Shown piece after piece: positions 4,152 to 31,809 of a stretch of DNA of 64,000 bases (positions are counted from its first letter, which is position 1; each line of letters starts with the position of its first letter). This stretch comes from Nitrospira sp. (GTDB lineage: Bacteria > Nitrospirota > Nitrospiria > Nitrospirales > Nitrospiraceae), in assembly GCA_036984305.1 (NCBI GenBank), contig BQWY01000001.1, positions 1,240,001 to 1,304,000 on the forward strand. Reading direction: 5' to 3'. The position numbers and the translations under genes are program-made. The notes under the pieces are model-generated. The model ran no database searches. It saw nothing but the letters and a program-made list of their open reading frames with translations, and was not told where the DNA came from.

Positions 4152-5099
4152 ATGCCCGGACCACACAGGCCGACCGCCGTCCTGCTCATGGCCATGGGAG
4201 GGCCGGATACACTCGAGAACGTCGAGCCGTATCTGCAGGAGGTGCGCGGCGGACGTCCGACCTCACCTGAACTCGTTCACGAGATTCGCGAGCGCTATCG
4301 GCTGACCGGAGGCAAGTCGCCCGTACTCGACATCACCCGGGAAGTGGCCCGCCGGCTCGAACAGCAGCTCAACGGTCTAGGAGATGAGTGGTATTGTGTC
4401 TCGGTTGGGCTACGGCACTGGCGTCCGTTCATCAAGGAAGCCTATGCGGAACTCATGGATGAAAGCCCCGAACGTCTCATCGCGATCTGCATGGCCCCGC
4501 AGTATTCCACGATGAGCATCGGTGCGTACATCAAGAAGGTGGAAGAGGCACGAGCAGCATGCGGCGGCGACTGTCCGATCACGTTCGTCAAGAGCTGGCA
4601 TCGCCATCCGTCCTTGATTGCAGCTATCGCGCAGAACGTCCAGCGGGGGCTGGACCTCTTCCCTCCTGATCAACGCGAGACCATCCCGGTCGTTTTTACG
4701 GCGCACAGCCTGCCCGAGCGCATTCGTGAAATGGGGGATCCCTATCCCGACGAAGTACGCGGCACCATGGAGGCCGTCTGCGAGCTCATTCATCCACCGA
4801 CGGCACGACTGGCCTTTCAGAGCCAGGGTCGAACGAACGAGCCCTGGATCGGCCCGTCGATCGAATCGGTCGTGGACGAGTTGGCAATGGCCGGGCATCG
4901 TAACGTGCTGGTCGCGCCAATCGGATTTCTCTGCGATCACGTCGAGGTGTCCTATGATCTCGACATAGAACTCAGACAGCGTGCGTTGAACCTCGGTCTG
5001 CGCCTGGAACGTATTCCCATGCTCAATGCTTCGCCCGCGTTGGTGGACACTCTGGCGTCCCTCGTACGCGAGCACGAAACCGTCGTCGTCCCGTCCTGA
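4152..5099 (+). CDS. hemH: ferrochelatase
   Basis: HemH inserts ferrous iron into protoporphyrin IX (or into coproporphyrin in some lineages). The 315-residue protein carries the invariant catalytic His in FTAHSLPER (His185) and the catalytic Glu in GFLCDHVEVSYDLD (Glu265), with the N-terminal LLMAMGGP segment typical of the family. The downstream gene encodes a HemY-type oxidase, which suits a classical protoporphyrin route, although a coproporphyrin route cannot be excluded from sequence. Start choice is supported by an ACGAGG ribosome site. It ends nine bases before hemG. Confidence 0.96.
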   Translation: MPGPHRPTAVLLMAMGGPDTLENVEPYLQEVRGGRPTSPELVHEIRERYRLTGGKSPVLDITREVARRLEQQLNGLGDEWYCVSVGLRHWRPFIKEAYAELMDESPERLIAICMAPQYSTMSIGAYIKKVEEARAACGGDCPITFVKSWHRHPSLIAAIAQNVQRGLDLFPPDQRETIPVVFTAHSLPERIREMGDPYPDEVRGTMEAVCELIHPPTARLAFQSQGRTNEPWIGPSIESVVDELAMAGHRNVLVAPIGFLCDHVEVSYDLDIELRQRALNLGLRLERIPMLNASPALVDTLASLVREHETVVVPS

Positions 5100-27996: not shown

Positions 27997-28352
27997 CCGC
28001 ATTGTAGGCGAGTCGCTCGGGGCACCCACAAGGACAAATGACACGGGGGCCGAGACCATCTGCCATCCTCTCCTGTTGAAATCCGAATAGTGTCGATTTG
28101 ACTCACCGCATCATTCGCCGTAATCTTCCGCCCGTATACCGACGAGAAATGCGTAGGAGCCTATGCAATCTCTGATCATGGTGTGGGACTTTCCTCATGA
28201 TGGATTCGGTGGATTCGCGCACCGAGTTCAAGACACGCATACGATACTTGCACGGTTCCGGTGTCTCGCCTTTCAGAAACAGCCACTGCCCGAATCTGCA
28301 TCTGAACACAGGTCATTTCGAAACGCGGTGACGTACCAGGAGGCATTCAGCC
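27997..28352. other. intergenic region with a truncated duplicate of the sunset-gene leader
   Basis: No intact gene. It includes copy 1 (28100-28172) of a 73-base repeat that also precedes the sunset-domain remnant at 28934. A 76-codon frame starting at 28163 follows the repeat but has no recognisable protein features. Confidence 0.4.
28100..28172 (+). repeat. 73-base direct repeat, copy 1
   Basis: Begins GACTCACCGCATCATTCGCC and ends just after the ATG of a small frame. It aligns without gaps to 28871-28943 with about a dozen substitutions. The two copies bracket the cupin gene. Confidence 0.6.
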
Positions 28353-28796: not shown

Positions 28797-28803
28797 TCGG
28801 GCC

Positions 28804-28826
28804 CGTGAATTCCTCAGGGCTATGTA
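28804..28826 (+). repeat. 23-base direct repeat, copy 2 (after the cupin gene)
   Basis: Matches 26800-26822 with one change (CCTCAGGG here versus CCTGAGGG). It starts eight bases after the cupin stop. Confidence 0.45.
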
Positions 28827-28870
28827 GACCTCCTGTCTTCTGTGCATAGTCATCCCTCTGGCTCATGGTC

Positions 28871-28943
28871 GACTCACCGCATCGTTCGCCGTAGTCTGCC
28901 GCCCGTCTACAGACGGGAAATGCGTAGGAGTCCATGCGGTTTC
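28871..28943 (+). repeat. 73-base direct repeat, copy 2
   Basis: Second copy of the segment at 28100-28172. It carries the TAGGAG ribosome site and the ATG (28934) of the sunset-domain remnant, so the repeat unit is the leader and start of that gene. Confidence 0.6.
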
Positions 28944-29186
28944 TAATCTGGAGCGGAACCTTGCTCACGATCATCTCGGCGGCGTCCGAGGTGGATACCA
29001 AGAAAGGCGTGGATCAACAGCAGCCCTCCAACGCATCCGATCAAAAGCAATTTCACGACGTATAGCCGGGAGCGGTGCATCTACCACATGCTTGGACAGC
29101 GGTTTTATTTGAAGACGAGAGCCGAACGATTTTTCGCGAGCGAGGTCGAGGCGGTGCGTTACGGCTGCAAGAAATCGAAGGTGTGA
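28934..29186 (+). pseudogene. frameshifted sunset-domain protein
   Basis: ATG 28934 with a TAGGAG ribosome site opens a signal-peptide-like MRFLIWSGTLLTIISA. A frameshift between about 28980 and 29020 is needed to continue into HPIKSNFTTYSRERCIYHML followed by GQRFYLKTRAERFFASEVEA and VRYGCKKSKV, ending at TGA 29184-29186. This second part matches the small 'sunset' domain (IKGN..IYH..G..FY..T..E..F..E.EA..AGY). The function of the domain is unknown; it is common beside nuclease domains. Confidence 0.65.
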
Positions 29187-29294
29187 GTTAGGCCGAAACA
29201 GAGGATAGGGAGCAACCCACAAGGTGTAGGCGGGCCCGAAGCGATCAGAGAATAGCCTGTCCTAAGTTGAAGCTTAGTGCTCCGGAGGACCATC

Positions 29295-29645
29295 ATGGTT
29301 CGCACAATGAGGGCTGAAATTGCTCGCTTGACTGGCCATGAAAGCTCGGTGAAGCGGGAGCAGTGTGCTGTTGGAGAAGTGTCAGTTTCTGGGTACTGGG
29401 CGACTCACCGCATGAGTCTAAACCAACTCAACGAAATGCTCCTAAGTCTGGCTTATGAAACTATATCTCCTGCCTTCTTTAGCAGCTTTTTTGGCAAGGC
29501 CTCCACGGCAGGGGTAGGTCGATCGCAATTTGAGTATGGGCTTAGATATTTTGAGCAAATTGCCTTGCTAAAGTACGGCAATGTCAAGTTCGGTTTTAAA
29601 ACCCTTGCGAAGAAGAATGCCAAGGAAATTAAGCAAGAGCTATGA
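29295..29645 (+). pseudogene. 5' part of an inactivated large gene (nonsense codon at 29643)
   Basis: A 116-codon frame with a GGAGGA ribosome site. The DNA is visibly richer in A/T than the flanking core. After the TGA at 29643-29645 the same frame continues with protein-like sequence (DFDSIPEQHYTSRPRPLLSI, then GHLTGDVVRASGDVKRIRRM) to about 29866, where a single-base loss moves the frame to the 3' part. I therefore read this as the N-terminal portion of one broken gene and not as an independent small protein, although a short truncated product could still be made. Confidence 0.6.
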
Positions 29646-29878
29646 GACTTCGATAGTATACCGGAGCAACACTACACGTCTCGGCCGCGTCCGCTACTTT
29701 CAATTAGCAACATAAATCCGAAGGAGACGTACTGCTTGGGCCATTTAACTGGCGATGTGGTTAGGGCGAGCGGTGATGTCAAGAGAATCCGGCGCATGGG
29801 TGCTATTCGAGATAAAGGACGTTCCAACCTTAATGCCTACCTGTGCAGCGATGAAATGGACATCTTGTCGCCACATCG

Positions 29879-30640
29879 ATGCGTGACGTGGAAGATTTCT
29901 ACTTTGTCGGAAGGGTAGTCCAGAGATTATTTGCCAAGCGGACGTTATCTCGCCTTAGGTTAAGGTATTTTGATCCCACACAGTCTTTCTGCGAAGATCG
30001 CATTGAAAAGGGATTGGTGGAGAGCCTAATGCTTAGACGAGCAAAGTGCACTCTCTACTGTGCCCAGACAATGGAGACGCTGGGCAAGGACTCTGAGCTT
30101 GCCGTTACGCTGGCGCAGGGTAAGCCGGTGGTTGTCTATGTCCCTAGGATTGAAGGGAACCAGGGAAAATATAAGAAGCTTTGTGATACAATCGCTGCCA
30201 TTCATGCTGCTGTAAATCAATGTGAGAAAAAAGACTACTATGTCACTAAGCTCATGGACCGCCATGCTAAGGATGTTCCCGGATCTACAGAGCTTAAAAC
30301 CTGGTCGTTGCAAAAACTTCAGGCCAAACTGATCGAGTTAGACCACAACAATTTTGAAAAGAAGGCCGAACAGCTACGTGATCGACATCCCTTGGGCATT
30401 CAAGTGAATCTCACTTCAGGGGTGGCAAATGGCGTCCTCGTTGTCCGCACTCTAACTGAGTGCGCTAAGGTCCTAAAAGACATTCTATTGAACCGACTAC
30501 AATTTGGTATTGCTAGGGATTCTAATGGCACGCTGCGTCTCGTTGAGCAGACGACAAAATGTACCTATCGGCTGATGGTGAGTGACCCAATATTAACGAA
30601 TTCCTTCTGGAATTTTTATAAACCTTGGCTCCGAGCATAG
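29879..30640 (+). pseudogene. 3' part of the inactivated gene; NDT/TIR-like Rossmann domain plus unknown C-domain
   Basis: A 253-codon frame whose real beginning probably lies just upstream, since LVATSMRDVEDFYFVGRVVQ reads through the ATG. The first 100 residues look like a nucleoside-deoxyribosyltransferase/TIR-like fold: a strand with ATSMRD, RYFDPTQSFCEDRIEKGLVE, LMLRRAKCTLYCAQ, and GKDSELAVTLAQGKPVVVYVP with a Glu at the place of the catalytic acid. The C-terminal 90 residues (HPLGIQVNLTSGVANGVLVV, then TNSFWNFYKPW) are an unfamiliar domain. The family assignment is by pattern only. Confidence 0.55.
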
Positions 30641-30993
30641 GTAAACGCTGAAAGCTCAGTTCTTGCATCGGTGAATCGATCCGATGCTGGTCATCGAATA
30701 GACGGGCTTGATTCCTTTCGCGAGTATGTCCGGCAATAGAGCATGATGCGCGGGTCCTACTGCCGTGATAAAGGGGCTCAGCATTCCGACGAGCCACCTT
30801 CTCTTCCTTCGCGCCGACCAGCGGAACAACGGGCCCCAGACCAGAACGATACACGTTCGTATCCCGCTGGATACACTTGCCGGCCTTTGCCGCTGCGCTG
30901 CTCATGAATTTCCCCTAGGTTAGCGCGGGGCCCCTCGTTTGCAAGCAAGGGTTGGTGTCTACCCGCATAACCACTCTTACCGAGAGGCCCGAC
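30641..30993. other. intergenic stretch, no supported gene
   Basis: About 350 bases. A minus-strand frame covers most of it but has no start signal and mixed composition. The right end provides a GAGAGG ribosome site for the secreted protein at 30994. Confidence 0.35.
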
Positions 30994-31809
30994 ATGACAC
31001 CGTACTCTGCCATCCGCTTCATCACGCTGCTGGCGCTGTCCCTTGCGATGCCGGCGCTGGTTCCCTCAGACTTGGCGGCGACAGGCGCTGTACGGCCGGG
31101 AAGCGGTTACACGATCTCCTCCGCCCCGCTCGACCACACCAATCCTCAATACACCATCAATGAGTATCGCACGTACGTCGTGGCGGGGTGCGTCCCGAAG
31201 CATCTGCCGATTCACGGGCCGGTCGGCTCCGTGTGGGTGGCCTGCAACGATTTGGATTACGCGAAGGACAAGGTGGTGGAGAGCGACTTCGTCTCCTGCC
31301 TCGATATTTACCGGAACGGCGTGCTGCAGGGGCTGTTCATCAAGGAGGTGAACAACCGCACCTGGGAATCGTTCCGTTTTTCCTGCCGGGAGCTTCAGTC
31401 GGACGGGACCGTGGGTGACAAATGGGAGAAGGCCCCGTTCCTGTTCAACTACGAGAAGGAAGGGAAGCTATGGGAGACGACCGTGCCGACCGGGCGCCTC
31501 TCATACGGGATTCTGGAGGTCTACAACAAGCTGCAACTGCGGGAGAGCCTGCTGCAGGTGGCCATCGAACATGCGACGGCGGACGATATCTACGACAACG
31601 GTCAGCGGGGCAAAGACCCGGAGATTCACTTCAGCGACAAGGTGCCGAACGCGTTTGGGCTGGGCGGCTTGATCGGAATTCACCACTGGCAGTGCCCCCC
31701 GGGGATGGTGGTGACGGGGGCCGCCATCGGCCATGTGCCCAACAAGAAGGGGAAGCACACACGGCCGGTCTATCTGTTGCTGGAGTGTCGCAAGCTGCTG
31801 CACAGCTAG
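30994..31809 (+). CDS. secreted protein of unknown function
   Basis: A 271-residue protein with a clear signal peptide (ALSLAMPALVPSDLAATGA). The longer frame adds 14 residues, but ATG 30994 carries the ribosome site. The mature part has paired Cys residues (for example AGCVPKHLP and VACNDLDYAK, later FSCREL and HWQCPPGMVVTGAAIGH, LLECRKL), suggesting disulfide-stabilised beta structure. The final repeat-like segment resembles lectin or VMO-type folds only loosely. It faces the metallohydrolase gene, with a terminator hairpin between. Confidence 0.65.
   Translation: MTPYSAIRFITLLALSLAMPALVPSDLAATGAVRPGSGYTISSAPLDHTNPQYTINEYRTYVVAGCVPKHLPIHGPVGSVWVACNDLDYAKDKVVESDFVSCLDIYRNGVLQGLFIKEVNNRTWESFRFSCRELQSDGTVGDKWEKAPFLFNYEKEGKLWETTVPTGRLSYGILEVYNKLQLRESLLQVAIEHATADDIYDNGQRGKDPEIHFSDKVPNAFGLGGLIGIHHWQCPPGMVVTGAAIGHVPNKKGKHTRPVYLLLECRKLLHS

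What the first reader, a model, noticed from the sequence alone, without database searches (positions are those of the whole stretch)
29295..30640. A single gene broken by one nonsense codon and one frameshift, with an NDT/TIR-like domain
The frame that begins at 29295 stops at TGA 29643 but continues in register for over 200 protein-like bases. A one-base loss near 29866 then joins LVATSMRDVEDFYFVGRVVQ to the 3' part. The central domain has the strand-helix pattern and acidic residue of nucleoside deoxyribosyltransferase/TIR-like folds, a class used in immune signalling. The gene is A/T-rich and isolated, like an acquired defence gene that was later lost.
Basis: partly seen in the sequence, partly recalled or inferred. 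Interest (0 to 1): 0.7.

Follow-up and report, generated by a model that had tools for sequence, protein, structure and literature searches.

The report
Broken NDT/TIR-fold putative defence gene
A bacterial chromosome carries the recent remains of one gene, broken by a stop codon and a reading-frame shift, from an unnamed and horizontally spread family whose enzyme-like core resembles NAD-cutting immune proteins and which, when intact, is often found near known anti-phage genes.

Summary
Window 29295-30640(+) is one gene broken by TGA 29643-29645 and by a frame change at about 29864-29867. An intact 455-codon homologue (G353/L015, 58% identical) covers all three parts, and one tblastn match runs straight across the stop. 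About 27 more family members, mostly intact, occur in nine or more phyla, in about 1% of sampled genomes of two of them. The family matches no Pfam, NCBIfam, PADLOC or PHROGs model.

An AlphaFold model (pLDDT 88.5, pTM 0.88) shows a helical N-terminal domain followed by a nucleoside-deoxyribosyltransferase/TIR-type fold (best Z 11.6). The expected catalytic glutamate is invariant (E264; window codon 30095-30097).

Family genes are AT-rich against their surroundings in 23 of 27 loci. At least eight loci have known or candidate defence genes nearby. In the closest intact relative, a SPARTA pair (TIR-APAZ, short pAgo) follows directly, on a contig with a relaxase and an integrase at a tRNA.

Best reading: a recently inactivated, horizontally acquired copy of an uncharacterised NDT/TIR-fold protein, probably an anti-phage nucleotide or NAD+ N-glycosidase. 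Gene, breakage and fold are well supported; activity and defence role are inferred. Sequencing error cannot be excluded without reads.

The parts
29295..29642 (+). 5' part of the broken gene: first 116 codons, in the helical N-terminal domain
   Evidence: Open frame; homologous to residues 6 onward of the intact homologue
29643..29645 (+). In-frame premature TGA, inside the N-terminal helical domain
   Evidence: intact homologues have no stop here
29646..29864 (+). Middle part, same frame as the 5' part: rest of the N-terminal domain up to the first strand of the NDT/TIR-fold domain
   Evidence: One tblastn match spans 29307-29864
29858..29870 (+). Place of the frame change, inside the first beta strand (family motif DVYVATSMR)
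   Evidence: tblastn matches end at 29864 and resume at 29867 in another frame; translations
29867..30640 (+). 3' part: rest of the NDT/TIR-fold domain, helical insertion and C-terminal region; surviving ORF 29879-30640 (253 aa) lacks the first strand
   Evidence: 66% identical to the intact homologue
29969..29980 (+). Codons of the invariant FDPT motif (residues 222-225 of the intact homologue)
   Evidence: Alignment A3, conserved list
30095..30097 (+). Codon of the invariant glutamate (E264 of the intact homologue) in GKDSELA.TLAQGKPV, the expected catalytic residue
   Evidence: aligns with the G..ELG.A.A.GKP motif of true NDTs by hhalign (low probability)
28801..29262 (.). Upstream flank, related to sequence upstream of a different single gene elsewhere in the same genome (C1:1155102-1155444)

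Best explanation
Window 29295-30640 is a recently inactivated, horizontally acquired copy of an uncharacterised protein family, mostly of about 450-560 residues. Intact members have a helical N-terminal domain of about 180 residues, then a nucleoside-deoxyribosyltransferase/TIR-fold domain interrupted by a helical insertion, then a conserved C-terminal stretch ending in FWNFY. The likely mechanism is that the N-terminal domain senses a phage-derived signal or holds the enzyme inactive, and the NDT/TIR-fold domain uses its invariant glutamate to cleave an N-glycosidic bond (NAD+ or a nucleotide), stopping growth of the infected cell. In this genome the gene is dead: the stop leaves only part of the N-terminal domain, and the surviving 3' ORF lacks the first strand of the fold. 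Shown here: single gene, two lesions, intact relatives, predicted fold, spread and AT-richness, defence neighbours. Inferred: enzymatic activity, substrate, sensing and anti-phage role.
For: Intact homologues over the whole length. Recent loss: 61 of 64 near-invariant residues kept. Fold: AlphaFold model, pLDDT 88.5 and pTM 0.88; NDT-type entries lead Foldseek's list (7m5h, 6qai, 2a0k, 7o62); VIA Z 11.6 (7m5h, 130 residues, 2.9 A) and 11.4 (6evs, 128 residues, 2.4 A), TIR domains at Z 8.3-9.3. Invariant E264 in the expected motif. Spread: nine or more phyla, 3 of 297 and 5 of 294 genomes; GC lower than surroundings by more than 2 points in 23 of 27 loci, mean -9.7 points. Defence neighbours: SPARTA directly downstream in L015 with overlapping ORFs, plus relaxase, Tn916-type integrase and tRNA-Ser; N6-methylase and Cas1 in L019; PD-T4-6-like kinase, TcmP (PDC-M41A) and DUF5131 in L021; TcmP in L033; TmtA and Schlafen-AlbA in L036; ThsB-like TIR in L053; SIR2-STAND in L059.
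Against: No member has a tested activity. Foldseek E-values are weak (best 5.6e-3) and Z 11.6 is only moderately above background, so the fold is secure mainly because the list is consistent. hhalign to true NDTs is weak (probability 7.5%). Many loci have no recognisable defence neighbour and no background rate was measured. The window itself is not an evident defence island: 41 ORFs gave only weak or generic PADLOC hits, and no TIR-APAZ homologue was found in this genome. The lesions could be assembly errors.
Confidence: 0.62

Rival explanations
1. The gene is intact in the living organism and the stop and frame change are sequencing or assembly errors.
For: All but three of the near-invariant residues are kept, so the gene looks as if it was functional until very recently; no reads are available.
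Against: Two independent lesions in one gene while the long ORFs around it are intact; the assembly is 99.97% complete in 11 contigs; the frame change does not lie in a homopolymer run; at least one other family copy (L033) also carries a stop.
Confidence: 0.14
2. The intact family is a housekeeping or salvage enzyme (nucleoside deoxyribosyltransferase or nucleotide N-glycosidase) or a nucleotide-sensing regulator, not a defence protein.
For: The fold matches metabolic NDTs and DNPH1 best; some members carry an N-terminal HTH (L054, L056) as a regulator would; several loci have ordinary neighbours.
Against: Patchy, about 1% of genomes, AT-rich against host in 23 of 27 loci, at least eight loci with defence-type neighbours, a mobile contig in L015. 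No match to PF05014 above threshold.
Confidence: 0.22
3. The protein is a third component of SPARTA (TIR-APAZ plus short pAgo) and the window copy is what remains after loss of the partner genes.
For: In the closest intact relative the TIR-APAZ start overlaps the 3' end of the gene, followed at once by the short pAgo.
Against: No other of the 27 loci examined has TIR-APAZ or pAgo hits with these queries; no TIR-APAZ homologue in this genome and no trace of either partner in the window.
Confidence: 0.05

Closest known systems
Nucleoside 2'-deoxyribosyltransferase / DNPH1 / MilB family (PF05014 and relatives)
   Same: Fold of the central domain (Z about 9-11.4); motif with glutamate followed by A...GKPV
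   Different: Large helical N-terminal domain, helical insertion before the last strand and conserved C-terminal FWNFY; no PF05014 match above cut-off
DUF4062 TIR-like NADases (Swarozyc; preprint PMC13174449)
   Same: Distant NDT/TIR-like fold with one conserved glutamate, auxiliary domain, patchy distribution (about 1-15% of genomes, 26 phyla, as that paper reports), defence islands
   Different: No DUF4062 match by any of 21 family members in Pfam; here the auxiliary domain is mainly N-terminal and helical
Retron-Eco1 NDT-like effector (described in PMC12887533; original work Carabias et al. 2024, cited there)
   Same: NDT-like domain used as an immune effector; NAD+-hydrolysing filaments reported in the cited title
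   Different: Works with a reverse transcriptase and msDNA; no retron RT among the 41 window ORFs scanned
SPARTA (TIR-APAZ plus short prokaryotic Argonaute)
   Same: Directly adjacent to the closest intact relative, L015
   Different: Our protein is neither component; adjacency seen in one locus only

Membership tests
Nucleoside 2-deoxyribosyltransferase (PF05014) | Match to the Pfam model above its gathering score | tested here: not met
   1 of 21 members at E 0.032, 14.8 bits against a cut-off of 28.8
Nucleoside 2-deoxyribosyltransferase (PF05014) | Rossmann-like NDT fold | tested here: met
   Predicted model: VIA Z 11.4 over 128 residues at 2.4 A to 6evs; NDT entries lead Foldseek's list
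Nucleoside 2-deoxyribosyltransferase (PF05014) | Catalytic glutamate in the G..ELG.A...GKP motif | tested here: met
   E264 invariant in 21 members; hhalign places it on the NDT motif, at low probability
Nucleoside 2-deoxyribosyltransferase (PF05014) | Deoxyribosyl transfer or N-glycosidase activity | not testable with these tools
   Needs purified protein
TIR domain proteins (PF01582, PF13676) | Match to a Pfam TIR model | tested here: not met
   No TIR model matches any of 21 members at E up to 0.1
TIR domain proteins (PF01582, PF13676) | TIR fold | tested here: inconclusive
   TIR domains align at Z 8.3-9.3, below the NDTs; the two folds are related
DUF4062 / Swarozyc | Match to the DUF4062 model | tested here: not met
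   No match in 21 members at E up to 0.1
DUF4062 / Swarozyc | NADase activated by a phage protein | not testable with these tools
   Biochemistry needed
Retron with NDT-like effector | Reverse transcriptase next to the effector | tested here: not met
   No retron RT hit among 41 window ORFs; other loci not scanned systematically for RT
SPARTA | TIR-APAZ and short pAgo encoded together | tested here: not met
   Present beside the relative L015; in the window genome no TIR-APAZ homologue and no trace of either gene in the window

The most novel reading that the evidence does not exclude
The intact family is an unrecognised, widely but thinly spread anti-phage system: a single protein whose helical N-terminal domain senses infection and whose NDT/TIR-fold domain destroys NAD+ or nucleotides, sometimes shipped with SPARTA on the same mobile element.
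Probability: 0.4. Interest if true: 0.6.

Novelty: new variant of a known kind. Interest (0 to 1): 0.42.

Why it matters
NDT/TIR-fold proteins are repeatedly recruited as NAD+- or nucleotide-destroying immune effectors, and new branches such as DUF4062 are still being found. This family is absent from Pfam, NCBIfam, PADLOC and PHROGs, has a different domain layout and gives a good predicted structure, so it can be tested directly. The window copy is a fossil of recent loss: a member acquired and then broken in a bacterium whose near relatives almost all lack it.

Tried and rejected
Pfam, PADLOC and NCBIfam scans of pieces or members found no family. tblastn in 72,556 plasmids and 50,697 phages found nothing. 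Back-translated single-sequence searches in viral and genome collections failed until a profile was built. PHROGs: nothing. Synteny for an empty site: flanking genes occur in relatives but never together, so no empty site could be shown. Independent families for the two halves: rejected, because homologues are single proteins. Programmed frameshifting or recoding of the TGA: rejected, since relatives are uninterrupted and no Rfam element lies nearby. The N-terminal domain modelled alone (pLDDT 87) gave only weak PDB matches, best Z 4.0 to EF-hand proteins with no coherent biological sense; its fold stays unassigned. SPARTA as a standing partner: not supported beyond one locus. Whole-genome download was not available.

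Full report
What is in the sequence. The frame from ATG 29295 ends at TGA 29643-29645, stays open for a further 219 bases, then changes frame near 29864-29867 and continues to TAG 30638-30640. The gene is 47.5% GC in a 59.0% GC window and sits in the lowest-GC stretch of the window. No other intact gene was recognised between 28797 and 30951.

One gene, not two. The first searches with single sequences found nothing in Pfam, PADLOC, plasmids, phages, viral contigs or 99 related genomes. A wider search of 396 genomes of the phylum found an intact homologue in another genus of the same family, G353 contig 108. Its 455-codon ORF (L015:8309-9676) is uninterrupted and 58% identical to the read-through of the window gene. 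tblastn of this protein against the window gives one match across the TGA (29307-29864) and one from 29867 to 30631, combined E 1e-154. A profile then found 22 loci in Acidobacteria, Planctomycetes, Sumerlaeota, Hydrogenedentes, Actinomycetota, Brocadiaceae, Chloroflexi, Bacteroidales, Coatesbacteria and Nitrospirota, one of them the homologue itself, one in IMG/VR, and a few more in sampled Acidobacteria (3 of 297) and Planctomycetes (5 of 294).

How the gene is broken. The stop lies inside the N-terminal helical domain, leaving about a quarter of the protein. The frame change lies in the first beta strand of the NDT/TIR-fold domain (family motif DVYVATSMR), so the surviving 253-residue ORF lacks a core strand and is unlikely to fold normally (inference). 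The read-through still has 61 of 64 near-invariant residues. In the 5' and 3' parts changes at codon position 2 are fewer than at 1 and at 3; in the middle part positions 1 and 2 are about equal (0.38, 0.36) with position 3 highest (0.67). The damage is therefore probably recent. Intact copies exist in other species. At least one other copy (L033/G427) also carries a stop, so decay is not unique to this genome.

What the protein is. AlphaFold with the 21-sequence alignment gave mean pLDDT 88.5 and pTM 0.88: helices over residues 1-180, an alternating strand-helix core from 184, a long helical insertion at about 286-360, and the last strands at 375-425. Foldseek's best PDB matches are mainly nucleoside deoxyribosyltransferases, at modest E-values. 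VIA-align gave Z 11.6 to 7m5h (130 residues, 2.9 A), 11.4 to 6evs (128 residues, 2.4 A), about 9-11 to other NDTs, MilB and DNPH1, and 8.3-9.3 to TIR domains. The glutamate of GKDSELA.TLAQGKPV (E264; window codon 30095-30097) is invariant, and hhalign places it on the G..ELG.A.A.GKP motif of true NDTs, though at low probability. From established knowledge of both families, this is where NDTs and TIR NADases carry their catalytic glutamate. No member passes the Pfam NDT or TIR cut-offs, so this is a separate family with the same fold. The N-terminal domain alone has no convincing PDB relative.

Why defence is likely. The family is thinly and patchily spread, and its genes are AT-rich against their surroundings in 23 of 27 loci, on average by 9.7 points, the pattern of mobile genes. 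At least eight loci have known or candidate defence genes within several kilobases. In L015 a TIR-APAZ gene overlaps the end of the gene and is followed by a short pAgo (PDB matches to SPARTA subunits at 3.5e-77 and 2.8e-108; PADLOC 4.6e-129), on a contig with a MobA/VirD2 relaxase and a Tn916-type integrase at a tRNA-Ser. Others: an N6-methylase and Cas1 (L019); a PD-T4-6-like kinase, TcmP and DUF5131 (L021); TcmP (L033), with DUF5131- and TcmP-like neighbours also at L034, the DUF5131-type gene there recognised by similarity to L021 and the TcmP by eye; TmtA and Schlafen-AlbA (L036); a ThsB-like TIR (L053); and SIR2-STAND (L059). I ran no matched control, so this is suggestive and not measured enrichment. 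The window itself is not an evident defence island and no TIR-APAZ homologue was found in its genome.

Mechanism and rivals. I think it most likely that intact members are NDT/TIR-fold N-glycosidases that destroy NAD+ or a nucleotide on infection, held in check by the helical N-terminal domain, like DUF4062 (Swarozyc, PMC13174449) and the Retron-Eco1 NDT-like effector (PMC12887533). Only the predicted fold, the conserved glutamate and the context are shown. The main rivals are a metabolic or regulatory enzyme, for which the HTH domains of L054 and L056 are an argument, and sequencing error at the two lesions.

Verdict. It is a dead member of a new family with a known fold.

Noticed in passing
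window 28801-29262 and 30980-31068; L066:2603-2945 and 4692-4781 (same genome, C1:1155102-1157280): Two different AT-rich single genes about 113 kb apart (the broken gene here; a 504-aa lipase/esterase-like gene there) lie between the same pair of related flanks (72-74% and 87% identical), as if at a repeated insertion site.
   Followed up: partly
window 28100-28177 and 28871-28948: A further partial copy of the upstream flank sequence, 85% identical over 78 bases.
   Followed up: no
window 28935-29187: A second, possibly degenerate small gene: a signal-peptide-like start is followed, in another frame, by a short conserved-looking stretch (SRERCIYHMLGQRFYLKT...), judged by eye only.
   Followed up: no
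L054:7747-9717, L056:7434-9398: Family members with an N-terminal HTH_3 DNA-binding domain; L058 looks similar by eye. A regulatory branch of the family?
   Followed up: no
L021, L033, L034: Family genes near DUF5131 (phage Gp37/Gp68-like) and TcmP pairs, themselves little studied.
   Followed up: partly
L019:14955-16502, L021:11697-13235: Cas1-like genes near family members in two Terriglobia loci, with further shared neighbours.
   Followed up: no
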